Source of the DNA: Undibacterium sp.
GTDB taxonomy: Bacteria; Pseudomonadota; Gammaproteobacteria; Burkholderiales; Burkholderiaceae_D
NCBI GenBank assembly: GCA_025359635.1
Contig: JANYFV010000074.1
Coordinates: forward strand, 1 to 35,934
DNA length: 35,934 bases
Reading direction: 5' to 3'
Below the pieces are notes generated by a model. It was given only the letters and a program-made list of their open reading frames with translations, had not been told where the DNA came from and did no database searches. Below, one piece after another: positions 1-14,110 of this stretch (position 1 is the first letter of the stretch; each line of letters opens with the position of its first letter). A program made the position numbers and the translations under genes.

Positions 1-1811
1 GGCTGTTGCGCCGTTGGCAAGCGTATCTGCACCCGGTTGAGTTTTTCACGCCAGCTTGTTGCGACCAACTCCTCTTGTGCTGAAAAATACTGCTCCGCCG
101 TATCGATGACTTGCGGTAGCTCGCTAAGAGTACCCGTCATAGGCAAGGCGATGACTATCGATTTACTTTCCCCAGGAGCTAAACTCAAGGGATAAAGCAA
201 AGCGCCCGATGCTCGTCCGCCAGCGTCATGCACGCTAAACACTTCTGGCAAGCTTGCAACAACGTCGAGTCGCTCAGTAATTTGACCTGCATCGAAACTG
301 CTGGCGATGAATTTATCTGCTTTACTCAAGCTACGCAGGCCAAGGCTGGCATTGACCAGAACGTCCTGATGATGAAATTCGAGCTGCTTGATATCGCTGG
401 CACCGCCGACGGTATTTAAAAATTGTGCCGGTGGATTGACTTGAAAAGGCCGTATCGCCAACGCCAAAGTGCGCGTGAATGCATGCTTGCTTAGATTGCG
501 CATGGTATAGCGCGCCATGATCTGCGATTGCCTGGCGCTGCCGCTGGCGAAGCTAACGATGTCTAGTGACAGGTCTTTGGTCTTCCATCTCACTTTGGGT
601 ATCGGTAAATAGCCTTCGCGCAGGCTTTGCGTTGAACTGACGTTGGCCCAACTCAAGACGGATTTGCCGCCGAGAATAAACGGCTCCACAGAAAAACCGC
701 CCTTATGTGATTCGATTGCGCCATCTTCGCCGATCAGCCCGGTAGCCTCGCCGCCATCGATACCGAGAATTGTCCAATACGTTTGTTCGCCCATAAAACC
801 ACGCGGATAACGGCCGCGCGGCGCTTGTTTTGCAATGGCTTGGATGAAGGTATTGGTGCTGCTACCAAAAGTGAGATCTTTTACTTCCAGCTCTTGAAGT
901 CTATAAAATTTCTCTGGCCCCGCTTGCAAAATCAAACGCAAAAAGCGCGCATCTGATTCTGGTAAATCAAGCGGGTCATCGCCGCCATTACCGTCAAATA
1001 CCTCACGCACGGTCTGCCATTGCTGCCCATCGTCGGACAATTGCACCAGGTATCGGCTGGCAAAATACTTAGCCGCCCAATGCAGAACCACGCCACCAAA
1101 TTCGCGTTTATTTTGAAAATCCAGTGTCAGGGTTTGTGCAGCACCCGGGTCACTTTGCCATGCGCTGACACGCTTGCTATCCAAAATGAAATGGGCGCTA
1201 GCTTGACCCGAGCTGGCGATAATCGTCGGTATCTGTTTTTGACTTAGCTTTGCATCCACTTCAAATAATCGTAATTGATTGAAGCAGACCGAGCCTGTAC
1301 CGCCATCTTTTCCAGCAGCCAAAACCAGCTCTAGCCTTGCGCTATGGTGCAAGCGATGATCAAGCGCTGGTCCCCAGGCAAACTCAATGTGGCGTTTCTT
1401 GACGCGCAAAGTTTGCCATTCTGGCGACGGTAAAAAATCTGCCTTGTTTTGCCACCAGACGTTTTCTCCTGACGCATCGACCAACTTGATTTGCAAATGA
1501 TTGCGCCCGCCCGTGCCCTTCACTTGCAACTCGAAAGCATATTCATCAGGGAAATCAATAGCCATGGCACGGCTGGCTGCTGCGTAGCCAGAAACGCCAT
1601 TAAAATCGTAGTCTATGCACATCGCATGATTACCCGAGGCGTCGGCGGCTGCAGATCGTAAATTTGCCTTGACCTGATCAGTTGCCTGTATTTTCCAATC
1701 GACCAGCTTATCAAATCCATCCAGCAGGCGCGGATTATTATCTCTGGCATGTGCCAACTGTGTACAAAGCAAAGTAAGCAGTGCCACGCGTTTAAAAAAA
1801 GAGTTGAGCAT
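1..1811 (-). CDS. Secreted discoidin (F5/8 type C)-like / carbohydrate-binding multidomain protein, truncated by window start
   Basis: Manual translation of the minus strand from ATG at 1811-1809 reads open to the window edge: MLNSFFKRVALLTLLCTQLAHARDNNPRLLDGFDKLVDWKIQATDQ... then ...ASAHFILDSKRVSAWQSDPGAAQTLTLDFQNKREFGGVVLHWAAKYFASRYLVQLSDDGQQWQTVREV (discoidin-like). Not in the ORF track because the stop is outside the window. Start overlaps the upstream permease stop (TGATG). Confidence 0.75.
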   Translation of the reverse strand, partial: MLNSFFKRVALLTLLCTQLAHARDNNPRLLDGFDKLVDWKIQATDQVKANLRSAAADASGNHAMCIDYDFNGVSGYAAASRAMAIDFPDEYAFELQVKGTGGRNHLQIKLVDASGENVWWQNKADFLPSPEWQTLRVKKRHIEFAWGPALDHRLHHSARLELVLAAGKDGGTGSVCFNQLRLFEVDAKLSQKQIPTIIASSGQASAHFILDSKRVSAWQSDPGAAQTLTLDFQNKREFGGVVLHWAAKYFASRYLVQLSDDGQQWQTVREVFDGNGGDDPLDLPESDARFLRLILQAGPEKFYRLQELEVKDLTFGSSTNTFIQAIAKQAPRGRYPRGFMGEQTYWTILGIDGGEATGLIGEDGAIESHKGGFSVEPFILGGKSVLSWANVSSTQSLREGYLPIPKVRWKTKDLSLDIVSFASGSARQSQIMARYTMRNLSKHAFTRTLALAIRPFQVNPPAQFLNTVGGASDIKQLEFHHQDVLVNASLGLRSLSKADKFIASSFDAGQITERLDVVASLPEVFSVHDAGGRASGALLYPLSLAPGESKSIVIALPMTGTLSELPQVIDTAEQYFSAQEELVATSWREKLNRVQIRLPTAQQ

Positions 1812-2665
1812 CACTTCACTGCCCCCATCAGCAAGCCCTGAATATAGAAGCGTTGCAAACCAAGGAACAACAGCAGCACCGGCAAGATCGTCACTACCGC
1901 GCCTGCCATCATCAATTCGCTGTCTTGCACATGCTCACGCGAGAGTGCAGAGAGTGCCACCGGCAAGGTATGCAATGCACTGTCGGTCAGGACAATCAAC
2001 GGCCACATAAAATCGTTCCAGCTGCCCAAAAATGTGAAAATGGCCAAGGTCGCCAGCACGGGCTTAAGAATCGGCAAGACTATTTTTACAAAGATCAGCA
2101 ATTCTCCGGAGCCATCCATGCGTGCCGCTTCCAGCAGATCATCAGGGATAGTTTTGGCGTACTGGCGCACCAAAAAAATCCCGAAAATTCCTGCCAGGCC
2201 AGGAATCAAAACCCCTGCATAGGAATTGACCAGGCCCATTTGCTTGAGCATCAAAAACAAGGGCAGCATAGCGACTTGGCCAGGGATCACCAGCGCACCG
2301 AGCATCAAATTAAAAATGCGCTCGCGCCCGGCGAAATGTAATTTAGCAAATGCGTATCCGGCCGCCACATTAAACACCAGAGACATGGCAGTGGTCAGCG
2401 TTGCCAGCAACAGGCTATTAAAGAAAAATCCGCCCATGCCTCCACGGGTAAATAGCACCTCGTAATTATGCAAACTGGCCGTGGCAGGCAACAGCGGTGG
2501 CGGGAAATTACCCGACTCACCTGGCGCCATGAAAGAGACCGACAGCATCCAGAGCAAGGGCGCCATGCTGAGAAAAGCGATGCCGAGCAATAGACTATTG
2601 ATAATCGCTTTTTGGCTAAAATCAGACCCGGGTATTTTCCTTTGGACTTGCTTAGCGTCGCTCAT
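1811..2665 (-). CDS. Carbohydrate ABC transporter permease (MalG-type)
   Basis: ORF 1811..2770, probable start at internal MSDAKQ (2665), which overlaps the upstream stop as ATGA. EAARMDGSGELLIFVKIVLPILKPVLATLAIFTFLGSWNDF is the conserved permease EAA loop. Confidence 0.92.
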   Translation of the reverse strand: MSDAKQVQRKIPGSDFSQKAIINSLLLGIAFLSMAPLLWMLSVSFMAPGESGNFPPPLLPATASLHNYEVLFTRGGMGGFFFNSLLLATLTTAMSLVFNVAAGYAFAKLHFAGRERIFNLMLGALVIPGQVAMLPLFLMLKQMGLVNSYAGVLIPGLAGIFGIFLVRQYAKTIPDDLLEAARMDGSGELLIFVKIVLPILKPVLATLAIFTFLGSWNDFMWPLIVLTDSALHTLPVALSALSREHVQDSELMMAGAVVTILPVLLLFLGLQRFYIQGLLMGAVK

Positions 2666-3540
2666 ACCGCCTCCGTGCGCTGCGAAAAATGCAGCAAGGT
2701 TTTGGTCAGCACTGCCATGATAACAAAGAGAATGAAGGCAACCGCGGATGCCGATCCCAGGTTCCACCACTTAAAACCCTGGTCATACATCAGATACAAA
2801 ACGCTGTAAGTGCTTTGCAAAGGGCCTCCCTGGGTCATCACATACGGTTCTGCAAACATCTGAAAATAGCCCGCCAGCGTCATAATGCCGACCATGAGCA
2901 TGGTCGGTGCCAGCATCGCTAAAGTGATGAAGCGAAATTGCTGCCAATGCGAGGCACCGTCTATACGTGCCGCCTCGTATAAATCCTCAGGAATACTCTG
3001 CAACGCAGCGAGAAAAATAATCATGTTGTAGCCAAAATTCTTCCAGACTGCAAATAGGATAATCGTCGGCATTGCCCAAGTCGGATCACCCAGCCAATCT
3101 ACCGGTGAGATCCCAACATAACTCAGGAGATAATTGATCAGGCCATAACGCATATGAAACAAATAGCGCCAGATCACGGCCACAGCGACGACCGTAGTAA
3201 CGACAGGCGCAAACATAGCGGTACGAAACAGCGGCTTGGCCAGCGCCAATCTGGAATGTAATAACATCGCACTGGCAAGCGACATCGCCATCGACAAGGG
3301 CACGCCTACCACGACGAAATAAAAAGTATTTCCTAGTGATTTCCAGAATAATGGCAGCTGTAAAATATCGACATAATTCTTGAACCAGACAAAGCGTAGG
3401 TTATTTAAATCGGCCAAGGCATACAGATCAAAATCGGTCAGGCTCAAGGTAAATCCAACCAGTACCGGCAAGACAAAAAACAGGCCGATCACGATCAAGG
3501 CAGGAGCGGCGAAGAGCCAGGCTGCGACGCTCTTTTTCAT
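2662..3540 (-). CDS. Sugar ABC transporter permease (MalF/UgpA-type)
   Basis: ORF 292 aa, multiple TM segments, EAA loop LYEAARIDGASHWQQFRFITLAML; overlaps neighbours by 4 bp. Confidence 0.92.
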   Translation of the reverse strand: MKKSVAAWLFAAPALIVIGLFFVLPVLVGFTLSLTDFDLYALADLNNLRFVWFKNYVDILQLPLFWKSLGNTFYFVVVGVPLSMAMSLASAMLLHSRLALAKPLFRTAMFAPVVTTVVAVAVIWRYLFHMRYGLINYLLSYVGISPVDWLGDPTWAMPTIILFAVWKNFGYNMIIFLAALQSIPEDLYEAARIDGASHWQQFRFITLAMLAPTMLMVGIMTLAGYFQMFAEPYVMTQGGPLQSTYSVLYLMYDQGFKWWNLGSASAVAFILFVIMAVLTKTLLHFSQRTEAV

Positions 3541-4859
3541 TGTTTAGCTCCGCCATCTGCTGGTTTTTTACCACGCTGCTGATCCATCATCCAGCGCCGT
3601 TTTTCTAGCCAGCCATTGACCGTTGCATCCAATTCCGCCTGATAAGTTTTGGCGTTGGTATGGAGATTTTTCTCTTGCGCGTACACGGTCTTGGCTGCGC
3701 TCAATTGCATCTCATTGACGATACGCTCCCATTGCGGCACTTTGGGCGCGGCCTTTACTCTGTCCAGCTGATCCCGAAAAGCCTGCGCATAAACGTCGTT
3801 GGCCAGACTGGCATCTTGCCAAATACTCCGGCGCGGCGGCATATTGCCGGTCAACTCATGAAAGCGTAACTGGATATCTGTGCGCGACAAATATTCAATC
3901 AGTGCCCAAGCTTCTTTTTTGTGTTTAGCGTTTTTAAAAATCACCATACTGGCACCGCCCGCCGTCGAGGCCGAAGGGCCGCTAGGACCAGGCAAAGGCG
4001 CAGTCATCCAGGCATCTTGTAAATTGGCTGGCATACGGCGTTTGAACTCACCGATATTCCATGGCCCGGTAATGTAAAAAACAAAGCTGCCCTTGGCAAA
4101 CTCGTCCCAGACATTGGCGATTTGATTATTACTGAGATTGCGCGCATAGCCCTTGGCAAAAATTTCATTATAAAAAGCTAGGCTAGTGCTAAATCCTTTT
4201 CCCGAAAAGTTAGCGTAGCGTGCGTCGTCACGTAATAAATCATCTGACTGTTGCAAACTCATCGCAAGCAATGGCTCAAACTCATTCACCGGTAACAAGA
4301 TGCCCATGCGCTGCCCTTGCCATTTGCTTGAGATCGCGGCAAACATCGCGCGCCATTCGTCCCAGTTTTTTGGCGGATGATCGTAACCCGCCTGCGCTAA
4401 CAGATCGCGCCGGTAAAACAGCAGGCGGGTATCTACATACCAGGGAATTCCAAACAAGTCTTTATCCAGACGATTGGTATCGAGTATGCCGCCAAAAAAA
4501 TCATCGAGTTTAAAAGCAGTAGAATTTTTCGTATAAGGCGCGAGGCCTTCAAGCGCATTCAGCGCGCCCATCTCTGGTATCCATGAATTGCCTAGCTGCG
4601 CCATATCGGGCAAGGCATCACCGGCATACGCGGTGAGCAGTTTTTCATGCGCGGCAGACCACGGCAACTGCTCCAATTTAACTTTAATCGCCGGATGCGT
4701 GCGCTCAAATTCTGGTAATAATTGCGCGACAAATTCGCCTTCGCTACCCATTACCCAAAACGTCAACACCGTTTCGTGCTTAGTGCATGATGCAATGCTG
4801 ATACTCAGCAATACAGCACAAAAAATAATGCGCGAAAATTTGATCAAAATTTCAATCAT
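3537..4859 (-). CDS. Extracellular sugar-binding protein of ABC transporter (family 1 SBP), probable lipoprotein
   Basis: ORF 440 aa; N-terminus ...LLSISIASC with lipobox-like IASC; LTFWVMGSEGEFVAQLLPEFERTHPAIKVKLEQLPW and FYITGPWNIGEF are typical of sugar SBPs; overlaps the permease by 4 bp. Confidence 0.9.
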   Translation of the reverse strand: MIEILIKFSRIIFCAVLLSISIASCTKHETVLTFWVMGSEGEFVAQLLPEFERTHPAIKVKLEQLPWSAAHEKLLTAYAGDALPDMAQLGNSWIPEMGALNALEGLAPYTKNSTAFKLDDFFGGILDTNRLDKDLFGIPWYVDTRLLFYRRDLLAQAGYDHPPKNWDEWRAMFAAISSKWQGQRMGILLPVNEFEPLLAMSLQQSDDLLRDDARYANFSGKGFSTSLAFYNEIFAKGYARNLSNNQIANVWDEFAKGSFVFYITGPWNIGEFKRRMPANLQDAWMTAPLPGPSGPSASTAGGASMVIFKNAKHKKEAWALIEYLSRTDIQLRFHELTGNMPPRRSIWQDASLANDVYAQAFRDQLDRVKAAPKVPQWERIVNEMQLSAAKTVYAQEKNLHTNAKTYQAELDATVNGWLEKRRWMMDQQRGKKPADGGAKQ

Positions 4860-6393
4860 TAGTGCAGCTCGCTTGCGCCGGCTTGCAAGTCACTTTATTT
4901 AACCACCCGCCAGTAAATCCGGCACGCTGTAATCCGCGCACAATATACGGATTCTTACGCATCGTACGCCAGACCAGTTCATTTCTATAGTTGGCAATCA
5001 TTGCCAGAATTGGTCCCTGGTCGATACCAATATAGTCAGTGGCTACCCAGCCCTTACCTTCGATGACTTGCCCATCGCTAAGGCGCGCCTTATTGTTGGT
5101 AAAACTAGGATTAATCGCATCGAGAAAACCGTAGGTCGCATACAGAGTCGTGCCATATTTTCTGTGCATTTCCTCCACCGCCGGAATCACGATTTCTGGC
5201 GCAAAAGGTAGCGAACCTAAGGCCGCCGTAGGCGCGATAGTGCCGTCATCAAATGTGTGACGAATTCCTGCACCACGGGCAGAATAATCGCGGAAATTCT
5301 TTTGTACGCCCGCATAGTTAGCCGTCACCATGGTGCCTGGCCCATCGCTGGCGGTCAGACCCCAGATATTCGCGCTGTAATCTTTCCATTGCCCGGGATT
5401 AGCGATCGCATAGCTGCGTTGGGCATAGGTAGCGCGACGGCTGTTCTCAAAATAATCGATGCCTTTCTTGCGCATGAAGTCATCCTTGATGCCACGAAAA
5501 TCTATCCATACATGCGAATACTGATGGCCAAACATCGGTGCAAAGCCGAGGTGCTCTTGCCCCATATAACTACCCCAGGTCTGTTCGTAATTTTTGCTCC
5601 AAGCTTTCCATGCCTCTGGCGCTATCGCGTGCTCTGGCGGCGCGCCAAGTGCAAGTATATACACCAGCATAGCTTCGTTGTAGCCCTCCCAATCATGTGC
5701 AATAAAGCCATGCTCGGGGTCAAAGCCCATGCTGATTAAGGGAGAGCGCTGCTGTGCCCACTTCCAGTCTATGCGCTGATAAATTTGATCGACTAACTGA
5801 CGGATTTCCACTTCCGCTGTATCGTCACCATCAAAGTAGGACTGTACGAATAGCATGCCCGCCAAAAGCAGGCTGGTATCAACTGTCGACAGCTCGGTAG
5901 TGTCTTGCCTTAGGCCGTTCTTGGCATCCAGGAAGTGATAAAAGAATCCCTTGTAACCCGCGATGCCAGACTTGGCATCGCCTTGCGGTGCCTTATTAAA
6001 AAACCGTAAAGTCATCAGCACACGTTCGCGCGCTTGTGCGCGTGTGATGTAGGCGCGCTCCACACCTATCGGATAGGCAGTGAGCGCAAACCCAATCGCC
6101 GCGATACTGGCAAAAGTTTTTTCTGGATTGGGGTAACGATCCGGCGTCATGCCATTTTGGGGATTTGTTGTCTGCCAAAAGAAGTTGAATGTACGACGTT
6201 CAGTATCATCAAATAGCGGCGGTAATGTACGGGCTGATTTGGCCTGAACAAGTATATCTTTTGCAGAGACTACGCTCGCACTAATACGATCAAGCGGATC
6301 AGCTAACCCTGAACTATTTAGGCCAAAAATCAGTAACAGATCAGCAAATATGCAGGTAAATAAGCTTGGGCGAAAAAACACGCTTTTTTTCAT
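4852..6393 (-). CDS. PF10091 'glucoamylase' family protein, GH144-like (candidate beta-1,2-glucan hydrolase), secreted
   Basis: ORF 513 aa with signal-peptide-like N-terminus; DDTERRTFNFFWQTTNPQNGMTPDRYPNPEKTFASIAAIGFALTAYPIGVERAYITRAQARERVLMTLRFF resembles PF10091/GH144 proteins; 8-bp overlap with the SBP gene. Confidence 0.82.
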   Translation of the reverse strand: MKKSVFFRPSLFTCIFADLLLIFGLNSSGLADPLDRISASVVSAKDILVQAKSARTLPPLFDDTERRTFNFFWQTTNPQNGMTPDRYPNPEKTFASIAAIGFALTAYPIGVERAYITRAQARERVLMTLRFFNKAPQGDAKSGIAGYKGFFYHFLDAKNGLRQDTTELSTVDTSLLLAGMLFVQSYFDGDDTAEVEIRQLVDQIYQRIDWKWAQQRSPLISMGFDPEHGFIAHDWEGYNEAMLVYILALGAPPEHAIAPEAWKAWSKNYEQTWGSYMGQEHLGFAPMFGHQYSHVWIDFRGIKDDFMRKKGIDYFENSRRATYAQRSYAIANPGQWKDYSANIWGLTASDGPGTMVTANYAGVQKNFRDYSARGAGIRHTFDDGTIAPTAALGSLPFAPEIVIPAVEEMHRKYGTTLYATYGFLDAINPSFTNNKARLSDGQVIEGKGWVATDYIGIDQGPILAMIANYRNELVWRTMRKNPYIVRGLQRAGFTGGWLNKVTCKPAQASCTND

Positions 6394-6504
6394 AAATTAA
6401 GTAGTGGTACTGTGTTGCTGGAATCTATCCAAATAAACATTGGCCCGTCAAAAGAGAAAAGAAATGATTCACTGATGACGGGCTACATGACATTAAACTA
6501 CCTA

Positions 6505-9402
6505 TTAAAACACGTAACGCAAACTTAATTTTACTGTACGCATAGGGCCACCGATTCCATTGACTTTACCTAAATTGGCATTGTCGCCACCCAGGTAATT
6601 TTGTGGATTACCCGGTCCTCCACCCCAATCGTCGGCACCGCCATAATTAATGGTGTTGAACAAGTTGGCAATATCCGCCCTGAAGATCATTTTTCCGATG
6701 CCAGTAGCGATATTCTTGGACAAACCAAAATCGACTTGACGGAACGAAGAGCCATCGCCTTCAACCGAAACACAACTATCCCAACCTTTTGAGCAGTCTG
6801 TAATGCGATGTGGCAAGCCAGAACCAAGCGTCACTTTACCCGACATCATCAAGCCCCATGGTAGCAAGTTATCAGAGAATGCAGATGCCACCAGGCGATG
6901 ACGCTCTACATCTTTGGACGGATTAAATCCTGCTGTAGAACGACCGTAGGTCCAGTTAAAAATATCGTTAGTCCATTCCTTGTTGGTAGTTTTTCCATCA
7001 CTGAATGTATAGGTGATGCCAGTTGTCCAACCCGAGGCCGAAGTGTATGGCTTATCAGCCTTCAAATACAGAGTGCTAGTCTTCGCCTGCGAAATAAAAT
7101 CACCGAGAATTAAAGTGCCGTAACCTGGTACTGATCCCCATAACGGATCGATCGGGCTTTGTGTGCCCCAGCCACCTTTTGGATCGCGATTGCCGCCATA
7201 CCAGTTGAACTGGTTTTTGCTATGCGAATAAGTCGCGCCAACTTCACCATTCCACTCACCCAAGGCCTGACGCAAACCGGCACTTAACTGATCGGTAAAT
7301 GGCATTTTGTAGTCGTTTTTGATCATCCAGATTTCGCCACCCGCCTGCATATTTTTTTGCATTTCATCCAAGGCATGATTGGCCAGCGTGCGATCGTAGG
7401 AGCGACCTATGCCACCAAAGACGATAGAGCTACGATCACCACTCACATCATATGAAAAACCTAAACGTGGAGCCAGCGCACCAGCAAACGCCTTGCGGTT
7501 GCCAGTACTGATATAACCAGCAATATCCACGCCGCCTTTCGCCAATGATTGCGCATATGTCTGGCCTGCTGGCGCGCCATCACGAGGGTCTTGTTGATTG
7601 AAGATGGCGGCGCGATCTGCTGGCGTGACATAGCTATTGTTAAGCATGTTGGTTTCATAGTCCCAACGCATACCCAAGTTAAGTTCTAACTGCTTAGATA
7701 CTTGCCAGTCGTCTTGCAAATACATGCCAAACTGATTGTCTTTATATTTAACAGCGACAGGTGCCAACGCTCTATCGATTTGAAAATAATCCGCAGTCAG
7801 GTTATCTGAGAGCAAACCTGTAATCGGCTGCCCAGTCGTGTTATTGAGCAATTTACTTAGCACATCGACGGAGCGCGACGTACCCGACAAATCAATATCA
7901 ACTGCTTTGAATTTAGCACCGCCTTTGACACTATGACCTTGCCAGCCATTGTAGGTCAGATCATCTTGCAATAAGAACGCGCTCTGACGACGATTTTGCG
8001 CATCGGGTGAACCGCCAGTCCAGATCACATCGCGCTTGCCCTCTAAGGTATTGGTTGGTGAAATATAGTATTGAACCAGCGGTGAGGTACTGTTTGAATG
8101 CGGATTAAATGTATAGCTCTCATAACCAACCCGTGCTTCATTTTGCAACAGATTATTCGTCCAGGTATGTTTGACGTCGAAACGGGTTTCATCGTTGATA
8201 CGTGCCTTGTCATTGCCTGGTGCGCTCAAACCAGAATTTTCTGCTACCAGATCATTTTCACGACGAATACGTGCGCTCATTTCCAGTCGCTGATTCTCGT
8301 CAATTTCCAGATCAATTTTGCCAAATAGAAGATCTTCGTTAAATACCTGATTGTGTGAACCCTGCATGCCATAGAAGCTACTAGCGACCCCGGCATTGGG
8401 TAAAATACTCGCTACCGAAGCTAGGCCTACATTGCGCGGCGTCTCTATGCGCTTGCCTTCGTATGACAAAAAGAAATGTGCAACATCTTCTTTGATCGCG
8501 CCACCGATACTGGCGCCATATTGATTTTGCTTGAAGCTAGCACGGTCACTGCCATTCGCCTTATTTTCTTTTTCAAATGGACTGTAAGCAGTAAATTTAT
8601 CGCCAGTTTGATCAAAGAAAACTTCACCATGCAATTGATTGGTGCCTGACTTAGTAACCGCAGTGATAGCCGCGCTACTCACCTGATCAAATTCAGCTTT
8701 GTAATTTTGTGAAATGACCTTGTATTCGGCCAAAGCAGATTGCGGAAACGGGTTGCCACGGCTAGCATCCAAACCAGCTACACCACCACGCAAAATATAG
8801 TTCTTTTGGCTAACACCATCGATGAAGACATTGACGTTATCCTGATTTTGCGAACCACTTTGCATCTTGCCTATGCCTGATGCATCAACATCAAATCGCA
8901 CACCTGGTGCCAGATCGGCAAAGGCCAAAAAGTTACGACTCAGCTGAGGCAAATTTTCAATTTGTCTGCGCGACACGCTAGTATTGACTTCGGAACTTTT
9001 CACATCATTGCGATCTAGCCTGCCCGAAATGGTGACCTGTGCAATTGCTTCACCCTGATTTTTACTGGCATCTGCAATGGCCAAATCCAAGGCGGCAGTT
9101 TGCCCCAGACTGACCGTCACGAGGCTGGATTTATCTTTACTGTCGGCCACATGAATTTCGTAAGTGCCTGGCGCTAGTCCGACTAAAACGTAACGTCCAT
9201 CCGCATCCGTCATGGCTTTGTAACGCGCGCCGTTGTCGATGTTAACGGCAACTATAGACGTCGCAGCTTTGGCGGGCGCACCACTCTGCGTAATTTGCCC
9301 GCGTATTGTGGCTGAACTTAACTGTGCTAACGCTGGCTCTGCAAACAACATACCGACAGCGACTGCAATTGCTAAACGTCTGAAATTATTTTTCTTTGAC
9401 AT
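6505..9402 (-). CDS. TonB-dependent receptor with N-terminal carboxypeptidase-regulatory-like domain (Oar-like)
   Basis: ORF 965 aa; signal peptide ending PALAQ; SSATIRGQITQSGAPAKAATSIVAVNIDNGARYKAMTDADGRYVLVGLAPGTYEI; plug-like segment; C-terminus VKLSLRYVF typical of outer-membrane barrels. Confidence 0.9.
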   Translation of the reverse strand: MSKKNNFRRLAIAVAVGMLFAEPALAQLSSATIRGQITQSGAPAKAATSIVAVNIDNGARYKAMTDADGRYVLVGLAPGTYEIHVADSKDKSSLVTVSLGQTAALDLAIADASKNQGEAIAQVTISGRLDRNDVKSSEVNTSVSRRQIENLPQLSRNFLAFADLAPGVRFDVDASGIGKMQSGSQNQDNVNVFIDGVSQKNYILRGGVAGLDASRGNPFPQSALAEYKVISQNYKAEFDQVSSAAITAVTKSGTNQLHGEVFFDQTGDKFTAYSPFEKENKANGSDRASFKQNQYGASIGGAIKEDVAHFFLSYEGKRIETPRNVGLASVASILPNAGVASSFYGMQGSHNQVFNEDLLFGKIDLEIDENQRLEMSARIRRENDLVAENSGLSAPGNDKARINDETRFDVKHTWTNNLLQNEARVGYESYTFNPHSNSTSPLVQYYISPTNTLEGKRDVIWTGGSPDAQNRRQSAFLLQDDLTYNGWQGHSVKGGAKFKAVDIDLSGTSRSVDVLSKLLNNTTGQPITGLLSDNLTADYFQIDRALAPVAVKYKDNQFGMYLQDDWQVSKQLELNLGMRWDYETNMLNNSYVTPADRAAIFNQQDPRDGAPAGQTYAQSLAKGGVDIAGYISTGNRKAFAGALAPRLGFSYDVSGDRSSIVFGGIGRSYDRTLANHALDEMQKNMQAGGEIWMIKNDYKMPFTDQLSAGLRQALGEWNGEVGATYSHSKNQFNWYGGNRDPKGGWGTQSPIDPLWGSVPGYGTLILGDFISQAKTSTLYLKADKPYTSASGWTTGITYTFSDGKTTNKEWTNDIFNWTYGRSTAGFNPSKDVERHRLVASAFSDNLLPWGLMMSGKVTLGSGLPHRITDCSKGWDSCVSVEGDGSSFRQVDFGLSKNIATGIGKMIFRADIANLFNTINYGGADDWGGGPGNPQNYLGGDNANLGKVNGIGGPMRTVKLSLRYVF

Positions 9403-9444
9403 GGTATCTCCTCAACAATGATTTGAATTTAAACTAAAATTGAA

Positions 9445-9460
9445 ATGAAAACGATTACAT
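9445..9460 (+). promoter_or_regulatory. LacI-type operator copy 1 (ATGAAAACGATTACAT), upstream of TonB receptor
   Basis: Begins 43 nt upstream of the receptor ATG; 15/16 identical to copies 3 and 4; central CG typical of LacI-family operators. Confidence 0.75.
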
Positions 9461-9531
9461 TTATTGACAAAACCCTACTCGTATATAACTCTTCACCATC
9501 CACCCCTCCTTTTCCGACAATCTGCGCAATC

Positions 9532-10545
9532 TCAGCGTGTTTTTACGCCACACGAACTTCTAATCACTAACTCTGTCCGCAAAATATGCGGCACCACAAT
9601 TTCATCTGACTTTGTCATCTGCTGCTCTTCAATTTTGGAGACTAGGCATTGAAAAGCCAAACTACCCATTTCAGCAATGCGTACTCGCACTGTCGTTAAT
9701 GGTGGCGAGATAAAACGTGAAGTCGGAATATCATCGTAACCCACCAAGGCGATATCATTTGGCACTTTTAATCCGGCATCAGTCAAGGTAGATAAACAAC
9801 CGATTGCCATCATGTCATTCGCCGCAAAAATCGCATCCGGACGCACACGCATCGAGATAACCTGCGCCCCTACTTTCCACCCTGACTCTTCGGTAAAATC
9901 ACCGATCCAGACTTGCGGTTTTGCCTTAGGCACAAAATCCTTTAAAGCATCGCGATATCCACGTAAGCGCTCTTGTGCTTCAAAATTTTTCTCTGGTCCC
10001 GCGATCATCGCAATATTTTTATGCCCCTGCCCCACCAAATGCCGAACCATACTGTAAGCACCACCATAGTTATCGACAATAAACGACGGTAAGCTACTGT
10101 CTGCGATACGCGTATTCATCAATACTGCCGGCAAACCCAAGGGTAGCTTACTAGTCAAAAATTCTGAGTTCAAATGCGGTGACATCACCAACAATCCATC
10201 CACTCTTCCTGCCATTGCTTTAATTGCCGCTTCAGCCTCATGCACATCACCATGCGAACTAGAGACCAATAAATGAAAAGCCTTGCCTCTCGCTGCCTGA
10301 TCGATACCGCGTATCAATTCCGAAAAAAACTCTCCATGCAAATCTGGCAGTAATACACCTATCGTTTCGGTACGACGTGTGATCAAACTACGCGCAGCAT
10401 TTGACGGCACAAAACGCAATTCAGCTGCGATATTTTTAATCTTGAGTGCGGTCTCCGGCCTCACCTTTATATCGTCATTCAAAGCACGTGAAACGGTAGC
10501 AATCGACACCTTCGCCAGACGAGCAATATCCCGAATAGTTGTCAC
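9532..10545 (-). CDS. LacI family transcriptional regulator
   Basis: ORF 337 aa; MTTIRDIARLAKVSIATVSRALNDD HTH and periplasmic-binding-like effector domain (DAIFAANDMMAIGCL...VGYDDIPTSRFISPPLTTVR). Confidence 0.96.
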   Translation of the reverse strand: MTTIRDIARLAKVSIATVSRALNDDIKVRPETALKIKNIAAELRFVPSNAARSLITRRTETIGVLLPDLHGEFFSELIRGIDQAARGKAFHLLVSSSHGDVHEAEAAIKAMAGRVDGLLVMSPHLNSEFLTSKLPLGLPAVLMNTRIADSSLPSFIVDNYGGAYSMVRHLVGQGHKNIAMIAGPEKNFEAQERLRGYRDALKDFVPKAKPQVWIGDFTEESGWKVGAQVISMRVRPDAIFAANDMMAIGCLSTLTDAGLKVPNDIALVGYDDIPTSRFISPPLTTVRVRIAEMGSLAFQCLVSKIEEQQMTKSDEIVVPHILRTELVIRSSCGVKTR

Positions 10546-10665
10546 GCAATATTTCCCGTCGCCATCAAAAAATTTGCCTTACTTTGTTCCTGGCATTTCA
10601 CTAAGTTACTCCCTAAATTACTCACTGATTTTCTCCCCAAATTTCTCCGTATTACGACTTCAGAA

Positions 10666-10680
10666 GGTAACCGTTTTCAT
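10666..10680 (-). promoter_or_regulatory. LacI-type operator copy 2 (minus strand ATGAAAACGGTTACC), upstream of lacI-type gene
   Basis: GGTAACCGTTTTCAT on + strand, about 121 nt upstream of the LacI start; inverted relative to the other copies. Confidence 0.7.
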
Positions 10681-10753
10681 TTTGAAAGTAAACCATTTAT
10701 AGGGAACTACCATTGAACAGCTCATTTATGCGACAGTCTTTCATTTGAGAAAT

Positions 10754-12124
10754 TTATCCATAAAAAGGCATCGCTTGATTCAACACCTCACCTTTACTCG
10801 CAATTACTTTGGAGTAAAACCAGGCGCTCTCTTTCGGCGTTCTTTCCTGCGTCTCAAAATTAACGTGTACCAGACCAAAACGTTTGGAAAACCCGAGTGA
10901 CCATTCCAGATTATCCATAAATGACCAGGCAAAATAGCCTTTTAAGTTAACACCTTTTTCCATCGCCACATGCATTTCACGCAAATGCTTGTACAGATAA
11001 TTGACACGTAACGGATCAATCACTTTACCGTTCTCAGCGCGTGGCGCATCGTAGAATGCAGAGCCATTTTCTGTCACATATTGCGGTATATTTCCATAGC
11101 GATTTTTTACCCAGAGCAAGATCTCACTCAAACCTTCAGGAAATACTTCCCAACCGGTTTCGCTATAGGTCGCGCCAACTTGCTTTACGTAACCAGCCTT
11201 CACTGGCCATGCAGATTCTGAATGCTCGAATACACCACGGGTATAGTAATTAATACCGACAAAATCAATCGGCTGACGAATTAAATCAAAATCTTCAGCA
11301 GGCCAAATTGGCCACGCTTCGCCAAAAATCTCTGCCATCTCATCTGGATATTTTCCGAGAAAAACCGGATCGAGATATTGCCGGTTAAAATAAGCCTCAG
11401 TACGGGCAACAGCCGCCAAGTCTTCCGGCTTCTGTGACGCTGCATATTTAGGTTCAAGATTCACCACGATGCCAATTTCATGCTGGCCGACAGAACGATA
11501 TCTTTGCACCGCAGCGCCATGTGCACGCAAGAGATTATGCGAGGCGATAGGCGCTTCAAACAGATTACGATGGCCTGGTGCAAGCGCACCATGCAAATAA
11601 CCGCCATCGGTCACGACCCAAGGCTCATTCAATGTCGCCCAAAGCTTGACCCTGTCATCGAGTTTTCTGAACATCACTTCAGCGTAGTCGGCAAACCAAT
11701 CGGCGATATCGCGATTTAACCAACCACCTTGATCATCCAGTGCCGCCGGCAAATCCCAATGATAAAGAGTGGCATTTGGCGCGATGCCGTTTTCCAATAA
11801 ACAATCGACCAGGCGATCATAGAAACCCAGGCCTTTTTCATTGATCGCACCGCGCCCAGACGGCATGACGCGTGCCCAGTTAATGCTGAAGCGATAACCT
11901 TGCATGCCAAGCTGCTTCATCAAGGCCACATCGGTAGCATAGCGATTGTAATGATCACAAGCGACATCACCAGTATCACCGTTGACCATCATCCCCTTGG
12001 TACGAGTAAAGCGTTGCCAGATACTGGCACCCGCACCATCCGCCAAGGGCGATCCTTCTATCTGATAGGCCGATGTGGCGCTGCCCCATATAAAGTCTTC
12101 AGGGAATAGAATATTTGAACTCAT
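10754..12124 (-). CDS. GH1 family beta-glucosidase, cytoplasmic
   Basis: ORF 456 aa; FPEDFIWGSATSAYQIEG N-terminal signature, TLNEPW acid/base and VTENG nucleophile motifs; no signal peptide. Confidence 0.96.
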   Translation of the reverse strand: MSSNILFPEDFIWGSATSAYQIEGSPLADGAGASIWQRFTRTKGMMVNGDTGDVACDHYNRYATDVALMKQLGMQGYRFSINWARVMPSGRGAINEKGLGFYDRLVDCLLENGIAPNATLYHWDLPAALDDQGGWLNRDIADWFADYAEVMFRKLDDRVKLWATLNEPWVVTDGGYLHGALAPGHRNLFEAPIASHNLLRAHGAAVQRYRSVGQHEIGIVVNLEPKYAASQKPEDLAAVARTEAYFNRQYLDPVFLGKYPDEMAEIFGEAWPIWPAEDFDLIRQPIDFVGINYYTRGVFEHSESAWPVKAGYVKQVGATYSETGWEVFPEGLSEILLWVKNRYGNIPQYVTENGSAFYDAPRAENGKVIDPLRVNYLYKHLREMHVAMEKGVNLKGYFAWSFMDNLEWSLGFSKRFGLVHVNFETQERTPKESAWFYSKVIASKGEVLNQAMPFYG

Positions 12125-12166
12125 ATCGTGTTAATCCTTTTTGCCACAGCTTAAATTTCTGAATAA

Positions 12167-12182
12167 ATGAAAACGGTTACAT
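12167..12182 (+). promoter_or_regulatory. LacI-type operator copy 3 (ATGAAAACGGTTACAT), upstream of GH1 gene
   Basis: Begins 43 nt upstream of the GH1 ATG, the same spacing as copy 1. Confidence 0.77.
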
Positions 12183-12351
12183 TTTATATCTGAGAAAATA
12201 TTTTGTGTTGAAAATTTTATCCTTTCATTCGTTTTCTCAAAAACGCAACACTAATACACAATGTCCTGACGATGCCACGTACAACCAAGACAATTTGGAC
12301 ACTTAACAATAACGATTAATCAATATATAAAGCCACTGTAAAAATGTTTTT

Positions 12352-12771
12352 TTAACTGAGCAACAATTGTCCAGCGATAGTTAGTTGAGCGGCAAACCCG
12401 GCAATAAAAGCAAGTGTCCGTATCCATGGAATGGCGAACGTGTACGCCAATGCGTGAATGATCCTGGCAAAAAAATAGGCCATGCACGCTATCGCCGTGT
12501 TTGTGTTTGTTAAGCCCTGGGCATTGGCAACGAGTACCAGGGTCGCAAATACAAGCAGATTTTCAACCGCATTTGCATGCGCCTTCATCAAGCGCCGCGA
12601 CCAATCCGACTGAGGCTTGGGGTCTACTGGGTAGCCAACAGCACTAAGCAAACCACGAATAATAACCCGGTCAAGCACATACGGCACCCACAAAATTGCA
12701 GTGAACACAGTCACATATGTGAGGTACAAGAGTTCTATTTTCATCATTTTCTTTCTAGGATTAAGGTGCAA
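12352..12771 (-). CDS. MAPEG family membrane protein
   Basis: ORF 139 aa, four TM-like segments; RLMKAHANAVENLLVFATLVLVA and ACMAYFFARIIHALAYTFAIPWIRTLAF are MAPEG-like. Start may be at an internal Met (MMKIELLY). Confidence 0.83.
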   Translation of the reverse strand: MHLNPRKKMMKIELLYLTYVTVFTAILWVPYVLDRVIIRGLLSAVGYPVDPKPQSDWSRRLMKAHANAVENLLVFATLVLVANAQGLTNTNTAIACMAYFFARIIHALAYTFAIPWIRTLAFIAGFAAQLTIAGQLLLS

Positions 12772-12871
12772 TTGAAGTTAAAGGCATTTGCATCGGACCT
12801 TGTCTTGCCTGACACATGATCAACAAATGGAAATGACTGGTATTTGATAAAGCTCAAAAAAATACAGTGAA

Positions 12872-12887
12872 ATGAAAACGGTTACAT
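12872..12887 (+). promoter_or_regulatory. LacI-type operator copy 4 (ATGAAAACGGTTACAT), between MAPEG gene and ABC ATPase gene
   Basis: Identical 16-mer to copy 3; 98 nt upstream of the ATPase ATG, in the divergent intergenic region. Confidence 0.75.
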
Positions 12888-12985
12888 GCTATCTTTATTA
12901 CAAAGCCTTGCCTACAAAAATTTTTAAAATAATGATTAAGTGTAGCCGGATGTAAAAATACAACGCGACAAAATAAGGAAAAATA

Positions 12986-14110
12986 GTGATTAAAGTGAGA
13001 CTAAACAAAGTACAAAAAACCTATGAAAACGGATACTGCGCAGTCGTCGATGCTAGTTTCGAGATCCAGGAAAAAGAACTGTTAGTGTTGGTAGGTCCAT
13101 CAGGTTGCGGTAAATCGACGCTATTAAGGATGATTGCTGGTTTAGAGTCAGTCTCATCCGGAACCATAGAAATTGATGGCAGAATAGTCAACGACATCGA
13201 TGCCAAAGACCGCGATATTGCTATGGTTTTTCAGAGCTATGCGCTGTACCCGCATATGACTGTGGCTGAAAATCTGGCCTTCAGTTTGCAGTTGCGAAAA
13301 CTGTCAAAAAAAGAAATCGATGAAAAGGTTGCCAGCACTGCAGAAACTTTAGGTCTGCAAGATTTAATGGGGAGGAGACCCGCCCAATTATCTGGCGGGC
13401 AACGCCAACGTGTTGCACTTGGTCGCGCGCTTATTCGCAAACCCTCCGTTTTCCTATTGGACGAACCTTTATCGAACCTTGATGCAAAACTCAGAATGTC
13501 AATGCGCATCGAAATTGCACGATTGCATCGCCAATTAGAGGCAACGATGATTTACGTCACCCACGATCAGATTGAAGCCATGACCTTGGGGCAGCGCATT
13601 GTGGTTTTCCAAAGTGGCCGCATTCAACAGATCGATACACCGATGCAGTTATATACCAAACCCTGTAACGTATTTGTCGCCGGTTTTCTAGGAAGCCCTT
13701 CGATGAATTTTTTCCACGGAACACTCATCGAGGACGCCAACGATAGCACTCGCTATGCACTGGATCTAGGTAAAGTTCACCTACCCTTGCATGGCCTTGC
13801 CGTACAAAATAGCGCCTTATCGAACTATCTGAATCGCCCCATCATTTTAGGTGTACGTCCAGAGGATTTATTATTGCATCATCAATTGCAGCAAGATAAA
13901 ACCTACCAATCTGTCAGCATGAATCTGGACGCAGTAGAACCCATAGGTAATGAGATTTTTTTACATCTTCGCTATGCGAATCAGGATGTCGTGTCACGCG
14001 TCCCGCCTGATCAAGTACCGGTCACGGGTAAAAATATTATCCTGCACTATGCATTAGATAAACTGCATTTTTTTCAATCTGACGGAGATTCAGAACGCAT
14101 TCATTTTTAA
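12986..14110 (+). CDS. Sugar ABC transporter ATP-binding protein (MalK/UgpC/MsmK-type)
   Basis: ORF 374 aa; Walker A GPSGCGKST, signature LSGGQRQRVALGRAL, Walker B VFLLDEPLSNLDAKLR, C-terminal TOBE-like regulatory domain. Confidence 0.94.
   Translation: MIKVRLNKVQKTYENGYCAVVDASFEIQEKELLVLVGPSGCGKSTLLRMIAGLESVSSGTIEIDGRIVNDIDAKDRDIAMVFQSYALYPHMTVAENLAFSLQLRKLSKKEIDEKVASTAETLGLQDLMGRRPAQLSGGQRQRVALGRALIRKPSVFLLDEPLSNLDAKLRMSMRIEIARLHRQLEATMIYVTHDQIEAMTLGQRIVVFQSGRIQQIDTPMQLYTKPCNVFVAGFLGSPSMNFFHGTLIEDANDSTRYALDLGKVHLPLHGLAVQNSALSNYLNRPIILGVRPEDLLLHHQLQQDKTYQSVSMNLDAVEPIGNEIFLHLRYANQDVVSRVPPDQVPVTGKNIILHYALDKLHFFQSDGDSERIHF

What the first reader, a model, noticed from the sequence alone, without database searches (positions are those of the whole stretch)
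1..14110. Candidate beta-1,2-glucan / sophorose utilisation locus
A GH144-like secreted enzyme, a TonB receptor, a lipoprotein SBP with two permeases and a lone ATPase, a cytoplasmic GH1 beta-glucosidase and a LacI regulator form one coherent pathway: glucan binding and cleavage outside, oligosaccharide import, then hydrolysis to glucose. Seen: gene order and motifs. Established: PF10091/GH144 includes endo-beta-1,2-glucanases that release sophoro-oligosaccharides, despite the 'glucoamylase' label. Inferred: that beta-1,2-glucan (for example rhizobial cyclic glucan or osmoregulated periplasmic glucan) is the actual substrate, and that a TBDR+ABC system for it exists in this lineage.
Basis: partly seen in the sequence, partly recalled or inferred. 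Interest (0 to 1): 0.75.

Follow-up and report, generated by a model that had tools for sequence, protein, structure and literature searches.

The report
Beta-1,2-glucan utilisation regulon with unassigned hydrolase
This stretch is a complete gene set for eating beta-1,2-glucan, a sugar polymer that other bacteria make for osmotic adaptation and for interacting with plants and animals; the pathway type is already known, but the set also contains a conserved secreted sugar-enzyme that fits no described family.

Summary
The 4852-6393 protein is GH144, 64% identical to XcSGL (XCC2207), an enzyme shown to be specific for beta-1,2-glucan; all defining and candidate catalytic residues are kept. The binding protein's closest PDB relative of known ligand is Lin1841, the Listeria beta-1,2-gluco-oligosaccharide binder. 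The order LacI-TBDR-GH144-SBP-MalF-MalG-DISC recurs across Xanthomonadaceae and Burkholderiales. One LacI-type operator precedes TBDR, lacI, GH1 and the detached ATPase gene; in the 4.5 Mb genome, matches with at most one mismatch occur only here. In 146 genomes of the family it occurs in exactly the 7 that carry this GH144 clade. The locus is a new member of a known kind; DISC is a candidate new glycosidase family. Specificity of SBP, GH1 and DISC is inferred. The genome lacks MdoG and GH94 matches, so the glucan is probably foreign.

The parts
3..1814 (-). DISC: signal-like N terminus, F5/8-type-C carbohydrate-binding domain plus start of a beta-sandwich/(alpha/alpha)6 glycosidase-like region; truncated by the contig end (a variant of the rest lies on contig C591 = L096:14-2020, 93% identical in the overlap)
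   Evidence: full-length homologues; models; Foldseek; 4-nt overlap with MalG
1811..2665 (-). MalG-type ABC permease
   Evidence: PF00528; start corrected
2662..3540 (-). MalF-type ABC permease
   Evidence: PF00528
3537..4859 (-). Lipoprotein solute-binding protein, predicted beta-1,2-gluco-oligosaccharide binder
   Evidence: PF01547/PF13416; best PDB hits 3uor Xac-MalE 458 bits, Lin1841 202 bits, next 110 bits; lipobox SIASC
4852..6393 (-). GH144 endo-beta-1,2-glucanase, signal-like N terminus
   Evidence: PF10091; 64% identical to XcSGL/8xul with all key residues
6505..9402 (-). Outer-membrane TonB-receptor-like transporter (CarboxypepD_reg + OMP_b-brl_4, no canonical plug hit)
   Evidence: synteny
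9444..9459 (-). LacI-type operator TGTAATCGTTTTCATT upstream of TBDR
9532..10545 (-). LacI-family regulator
   Evidence: PF00356/PF13377
10666..10681 (+). LacI-type operator GGTAACCGTTTTCATT upstream of lacI
10754..12124 (-). Cytoplasmic GH1 beta-glucosidase (no signal peptide seen; E167, E352)
   Evidence: PF00232, TIGR03356 above cut-off
12166..12181 (-). LacI-type operator TGTAACCGTTTTCATT upstream of GH1
12871..12886 (-). LacI-type operator TGTAACCGTTTTCATT upstream of the plus-strand ATPase gene
12986..14110 (+). MalK/UgpC-type ABC ATPase
   Evidence: PF00005, OB_MalK, TOBE_2; NF008653 above cut-off

Best explanation
A LacI-controlled locus for using beta-1,2-glucan made by other organisms. 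The exported GH144 endo-glucanase cuts the glucan into sophoro-oligosaccharides; the TonB-receptor-like barrel brings glucan or oligosaccharides across the outer membrane; an exported, so far unclassified (alpha/alpha)6 glycosidase with a carbohydrate-binding domain (DISC) processes them further in the periplasm or outside; the lipoprotein binder with MalF, MalG and the MalK-type ATPase imports oligosaccharides; the cytoplasmic GH1 enzyme releases glucose. When the sugar is absent, LacI sits on one shared operator in front of TBDR, lacI, GH1 and malK. Shown by sequence: gene content, operon overlaps, catalytic residues of GH144, the operator set, and conservation of the set. Inferred: substrate of SBP, GH1 and DISC, cell location of each step, repression and its inducer.
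For: GH144 64% identical to XcSGL, with E240/D172/F288/Y370 kept, and XcSGL acts only on beta-1,2-glucan (PMC12102758). The SBP is much nearer to Lin1841 (202 bits) than to any other binder of known ligand (110 bits or less). Genes overlap by 4-8 nt. The operator is found 4 times in the 4.5 Mb genome at no more than 1 mismatch, all here; the motif TGTAANCGNTTNCA occurs 117 times in 80 homologous loci against 8 after shuffling, mostly before LacI/TBDR/GH144/GH1/MalK. Synteny in 80 loci. In 146 genomes DISC and this GH144 clade coincide in 7 of 7, in the other six on one contig about 3 kb apart, as in the window. Cluster logic of the same kind is described in Listeria, Streptomyces and Ignavibacterium (PMC12369401, PMC8861115). 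In the closest relative a glucokinase gene follows DISC. The host genome lacks MdoG and GH94 hits, so it probably does not make the glucan.
Against: No activity or binding was measured for any protein of this locus. The best SBP hit, Xac-MalE, is called a putative maltose/trehalose binder (specificity listed as unknown in PMC7676653). By eye the GH1 enzyme has Glu (in NLEP) where SGR_2426 has the specificity residue Gln229, so its preference is open. Many xanthomonad loci lack GH1 within 10 kb. The genome is a 602-contig assembly; DISC is split across two contigs that differ by 7% in the overlap.
Confidence: 0.88

Rival explanations
1. The locus takes up and uses alpha- or beta-1,4-glucosides (maltodextrin, trehalose, cellobiose), as the labels glucoamylase, MalE/F/G/K and beta-glucosidase suggest; GH144 is incidental.
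For: Database labels (PF10091 'putative glucoamylase', Xac-MalE, NF008653 UgpC/MalK); the GH1 enzyme resembles many beta-glucosidases without a beta-1,2 label.
Against: XcSGL gave no activity on soluble starch, CM-cellulose, laminarin and others (PMC12102758); the SBP is nearer to Lin1841 than to maltose, trehalose or cellobiose binders; no alpha-amylase or cellulase family was seen in the locus.
Confidence: 0.06
2. [quoted passage not shown]
For: Some Burkholderiales and Xanthomonas make cyclic beta-1,2-glucans (PMC11842490); in a family member (G007) another GH144 clade lies about 14 kb from a GH94-containing gene.
Against: The own genome (99.8% complete) has no MdoG (PF04349) and no GH94 (PF17167) match; the outer-membrane transporter and the LacI operator set point to uptake from outside.
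Confidence: 0.08
3. DISC is not an enzyme of the pathway but a binding protein, with the glycosidase fold kept only for binding.
For: It carries an F5/8-type carbohydrate-binding domain; no catalytic residue has been proven.
Against: Strict conservation of acidic residues (D322, E370, D372, E436, D448, E562, E599 in the L073 catalytic-domain numbering are invariant in 44 sequences), as in an active site; strict linkage to the endo-glucanase.
Confidence: 0.2

Closest known systems
XcSGL (XCC2207), GH144 endo-beta-1,2-glucanase of Xanthomonas campestris, PDB 8XUL (PMC12102758)
   Same: 64% identity, same catalytic and clan-defining residues; homologous Xanthomonas loci have the same gene order
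   Different: Other organism; the window protein ends soon after the barrel, without the disordered C-terminal tail described for XcSGL
Sophoro-oligosaccharide cluster of Listeria innocua (Lin1839-Lin1841)
   Same: Related SBP and ABC import of Sopn followed by intracellular breakdown
   Different: Listeria uses a GH94 phosphorylase and GH3; no outer membrane; GH144 and DISC are not described there
Streptomyces griseus SGR_2422-2427 cluster (PMC12369401)
   Same: Lin1841-like SBP, ABC transporter, GH1 beta-glucosidase and an endo-beta-1,2-glucanase homologue in one cluster
   Different: The glucanase is GH193; Gram-positive; GH1 there has Gln229 at the specificity position
Ignavibacterium album GH144 cluster (PMC8861115)
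   Same: GH144, TonB-dependent transporter and ABC importer with a Sopn-binder homologue proposed as one path
   Different: Has GH3, GH94 and a GH35 transglycosylase; DISC not described there
CUT loci of Xanthomonas (PMC1790865)
   Same: TonB receptor, enzymes, inner-membrane transport and LacI-type regulator in one locus; XCC2208, named there as lacking a canonical plug, is numbered next to XCC2207
   Different: In the passages read, no substrate is given for XCC2208; the sux system uses an MFS transporter, here an ABC importer
GH94, GH15 and GH116 (alpha/alpha)6 enzymes, for DISC
   Same: Fold: Foldseek E down to 1.6e-16, TM about 0.6
   Different: 11-12% identity; no profile match above cut-off to these families; DISC has a signal-like N terminus and N-terminal carbohydrate-binding domains

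Membership tests
GH144 | PF10091 catalytic domain above curated cut-off | tested here: met
   280 bits vs cut-off 27
GH144 | SGL-clan residues E239, F286, Y367 (XcSGL numbering) | tested here: met
   E240, F288, Y370 (PMC12102758)
GH144 | Acidic general-base candidate at the position of CpSGL E142 | tested here: met
   D172, as in XcSGL
GH144 | Nearer to endo-type members than to the exo-type GH144 BDI_3064 | tested here: met
   671 bits to XcSGL vs 152 bits to BDI_3064
GH144 | Endolytic activity specific for beta-1,2-glucan | not testable with these tools
   needs an enzyme assay
Sopn-binding SBP (Lin1841 type) | Closest sequence relationship among solved SBPs of known ligand | tested here: met
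   202 bits to Lin1841; next 110 bits. The very best hit, 3uor, has unknown specificity
Sopn-binding SBP (Lin1841 type) | Ligand-contact residues of Lin1841 | not tested
   structure paper not held
CUT1 ABC importer | SBP, two PF00528 permeases and an ATPase with MalK-type OB/TOBE domains | tested here: met
   ATPase tied to the locus by the operator
Sopn-specific GH1 (SGR_2426 type) | GH1 domain with two catalytic Glu, no signal peptide | tested here: met
   E167, E352; TIGR03356 above cut-off; signal peptide judged by eye
Sopn-specific GH1 (SGR_2426 type) | Subsite +1 residues Trp291, Gln229, hydrophobic 171 | tested here: inconclusive
   Trp at nucleophile-27 and Val at acid/base+3 fit by position; the Gln229 position reads Glu by eye, no structural alignment made
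TonB-dependent receptor | Canonical Plug domain | tested here: not met
   No Plug hit in Pfam; CarboxypepD_reg and OMP_b-brl_4 only. It is therefore described as TonB-receptor-like
TonB-dependent receptor | Outer-membrane beta-barrel of the receptor type | tested here: met
   PF25183 E 4.8e-54
GH94 / GH15 (for DISC) | Significant family-profile match | tested here: not met
   No GH94 or GH15 match above cut-off; PF00723 sub-threshold in 5 of 44; TIGR01577 42.7 bits vs cut-off 820.7; no PDB sequence at E<=10
(alpha/alpha)6 glycosidase superfamily (for DISC) | Beta-sandwich plus (alpha/alpha)6 barrel fold | tested here: met
   model pLDDT 91.6, pTM 0.93; Foldseek 1.6e-16 to GH94

The most novel reading that the evidence does not exclude
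DISC is the founding member of an undescribed glycoside hydrolase family dedicated to beta-1,2-glucan breakdown. One specific, untested possibility is that it removes what the endo-glucanase and GH1 cannot, for example the alpha-1,6 closure of the alpha-1,6-cyclised beta-1,2-glucans made by Xanthomonas and Ralstonia.
Probability: 0.4. Interest if true: 0.62.

Novelty: new member of a known kind. Interest (0 to 1): 0.42.

Why it matters
Beta-1,2-glucans are factors in symbiosis and infection, and who degrades them in nature is poorly mapped. This gives a regulon-level signature (operator plus gene order) that predicts beta-1,2-glucan use across Xanthomonadaceae and Burkholderiales, suggests that the structure filed as Xanthomonas 'MalE' (3UOR) is really a sophoro-oligosaccharide binder, and offers a concrete, strictly co-conserved candidate for a new glycosidase family.

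Tried and rejected
Hypothesis that the enzyme belongs to one of the newer families GH192-194: rejected, XCC2207/XcSGL is classed as GH144 in PMC12102758. GH94 versus GH15 assignment of DISC: the 11-sequence model pointed to GH15 first and the better 44-sequence model to GH94 first; profile-profile comparison gave weak, comparable scores (68.7% vs 42.2% probability; in an earlier run, the GH94 sequences were read in the wrong frame and that comparison is void), so neither is claimed. Search for other beta-glucosidases in loci without GH1: the long ORFs picked in GC-rich genomes were often spurious and nothing relevant was found. MAPEG gene as part of the system: rejected, it does not lie between GH1 and MalK in L073. 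Papers on the Lin1841 and Xac-MalE structures are not in the library. Generic promoter and terminator scans gave no clear excess over shuffles.
Full report
Observation. The gene list in the finding is correct. On the minus strand, in transcription order, lie GH1 (10754-12124), LacI (9532-10545), an outer-membrane TonB-receptor-like barrel (6505-9402), GH144 (4852-6393), lipoprotein SBP (3537-4859), two permeases (2662-3540 and 1811-2665) and a gene cut by the contig end (3-1814, called DISC here). A MalK/UgpC-type ATPase (12986-14110) is on the plus strand. The five genes GH144 to DISC overlap by 8, 4, 4 and 4 nt, so they form one coupled operon. A MAPEG gene (12352-12771) sits between GH1 and the ATPase; in the closest relative (L073, GH144 77% identical) the ATPase gene is directly divergent from GH1.

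The glucanase. The nearest solved structure is XCC2207/XcSGL (8xul, 671 bits, 64% identity over 440 residues). XcSGL was shown to hydrolyse beta-1,2-glucan and none of the other polysaccharides tested on it, soluble starch included, and it is placed in GH144 (PMC12102758). The residues that define the clan (XcSGL E239, F286, Y367) and the general-base candidate (CpSGL E142 position) are E240, F288, Y370 and D172 in the window protein.

The importer. The SBP's best PDB hit is Xac-MalE (3uor, 458 bits), listed in a later paper with binding specificity 'Unknown' (PMC7676653). The second is Lin1841 (202 bits), the Listeria binder of beta-1,2-gluco-oligosaccharides; all further binders, among them a set labelled maltose, trehalose or acarbose binding, follow at 110 bits or less. 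Inference: both this SBP and Xac-MalE bind sophoro-oligosaccharides. The outer-membrane protein has no canonical Plug match. XCC2208, numbered next to XCC2207, was noted in 2007 as a TBDR without a canonical plug (PMC1790865).

The regulator and its operator. Upstream regions of TBDR, LacI, GH1 and the plus-strand ATPase each contain TGTAA[C/T]CGTTTTCATT or GGTAACCGTTTTCATT. In the window, 5 matches with up to 3 mismatches were found against 0.65 expected. In the 4.5 Mb genome the only matches with at most one mismatch are these four; the three further two-mismatch sites are within background, since the reversed control pattern gave 10 hits in all at that tolerance. The general form TGTAANCGNTTNCA (at most one mismatch) occurs 117 times in 80 homologous loci and 8 times after mononucleotide shuffling, mostly next to LacI, TBDR, GH144, GH1 or MalK. 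This ties the detached ATPase and GH1 to the locus. That LacI binds this site is inferred.

Conservation. In 80 GH144-containing loci from other genomes, 77 keep SBP+MalF+MalG, 73 keep DISC, 32 keep GH1 within about 10 kb and 12 a MalK gene. They come from Xanthomonadaceae, Duganella, Massilia, Rugamonas, Rhizobacter and Rhodoferax among others. Two Sphingomonas loci lack SBP, permeases and DISC. In 146 genomes of the window's family, DISC occurs in exactly seven, the same seven with the XcSGL-like GH144 (59% identity or more), with both genes close together on one contig; 18 genomes with only a more distant GH144 (44-51%) have no DISC. None of the seven other genomes of the same genus has either gene, so the locus is patchy.

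DISC. The window holds the N-terminal 604 residues: signal-like N terminus, an N-terminal beta-rich region, an F5/8-type domain (PF00754; nearest PDB chains by profile are carbohydrate-binding domains of a glucanase/chitosanase) and the start of the main domain. Contig C591 of the same genome holds a C-terminal part; the 610-nt overlap is 93% identical, so the two contigs are strain variants, paralogues or a misassembly rather than a clean join, and a short repeated piece lies at the C591 end. Full-length homologues are about 1,060 residues. The main domain has no PDB sequence relative at E<=10 and no NCBIfam family above cut-off; in the Pfam scan of the closest homologue only the F5/8-type domain passes. 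Weak matches are mostly to (alpha/alpha)6 enzymes (GH78 in 40 of 44, amylo-alpha-1,6-glucosidase in 17, GH95 in 14, GH15 in 5, best E 1.9e-7 for GH78; TIGR01577 oligosaccharide amylase at 42.7 bits in 41 of 44). AlphaFold2 on 44 homologues gives pLDDT 91.6, pTM 0.93; Foldseek finds GH94 phosphorylases, a GH15 dextran dextrinase and GH116 at TM about 0.45-0.6 and 11-12% identity. Acidic residues are strictly kept. Since it looks exported, hydrolysis is more likely than phosphorolysis. Which bond it cuts is open; the alpha-1,6 closure of Xanthomonas and Ralstonia glucans (PMC11228985, PMC11842490) is one untested idea. In C591 an esterase-like gene follows DISC, and in L073 a glucokinase. Both would fit handling of substituted glucans and of released glucose.

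Source of the glucan. The genome (99.8% complete) has no MdoG (PF04349) and no GH94 (PF17167) match, although some relatives have GH94-containing genes of cyclic glucan synthase size. A foreign source is therefore likelier than recycling.

What is known and what is new. Beta-1,2-glucan clusters with GH144 or GH193, Lin1841-like SBPs, ABC importers and GH1 or GH3 beta-glucosidases have been described (PMC12369401, PMC8861115), including a proposed TonB-plus-ABC route. This locus is a new member of that kind. The regulon signature and the strictly linked unassigned glycosidase were not found in the papers searched; CAZy itself could not be queried, so an existing assignment of DISC there is not excluded.

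Noticed in passing
L096:2010-2876 (contig C591 of the window's genome): An esterase-like alpha/beta hydrolase gene with a signal-like N terminus overlaps the end of DISC; it could remove acyl groups known to decorate beta-1,2-glucans.
   Followed up: partly
L096:3012-5519: A 7TMR-DISM hybrid histidine kinase with receiver domain lies downstream of the esterase gene.
   Followed up: no
window 1-610 versus L096:63-672: The two contigs overlap at 93% identity with a 70-bp repeated piece at the C591 end, a sign of strain mixture or an assembly fault.
   Followed up: partly
G007:C1:2012196-2028449: A more distant GH144 (about 50% identical) lies about 14 kb from a GH94-containing gene of cyclic-glucan-synthase size, in a genome without DISC.
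   Followed up: no
window 6394-6504: GCCCGTCA...TGACGGGC inverted repeat with a long loop between TBDR and GH144; may set relative expression of the two.
   Followed up: no
PDB 3UOR (Xanthomonas citri MalE): Filed as a putative maltose/trehalose binder, but its homologues sit in beta-1,2-glucan loci; probably misnamed.
   Followed up: partly
L077, L079: Sphingomonas loci carry this GH144 without SBP, permeases or DISC, so import there must differ.
   Followed up: no
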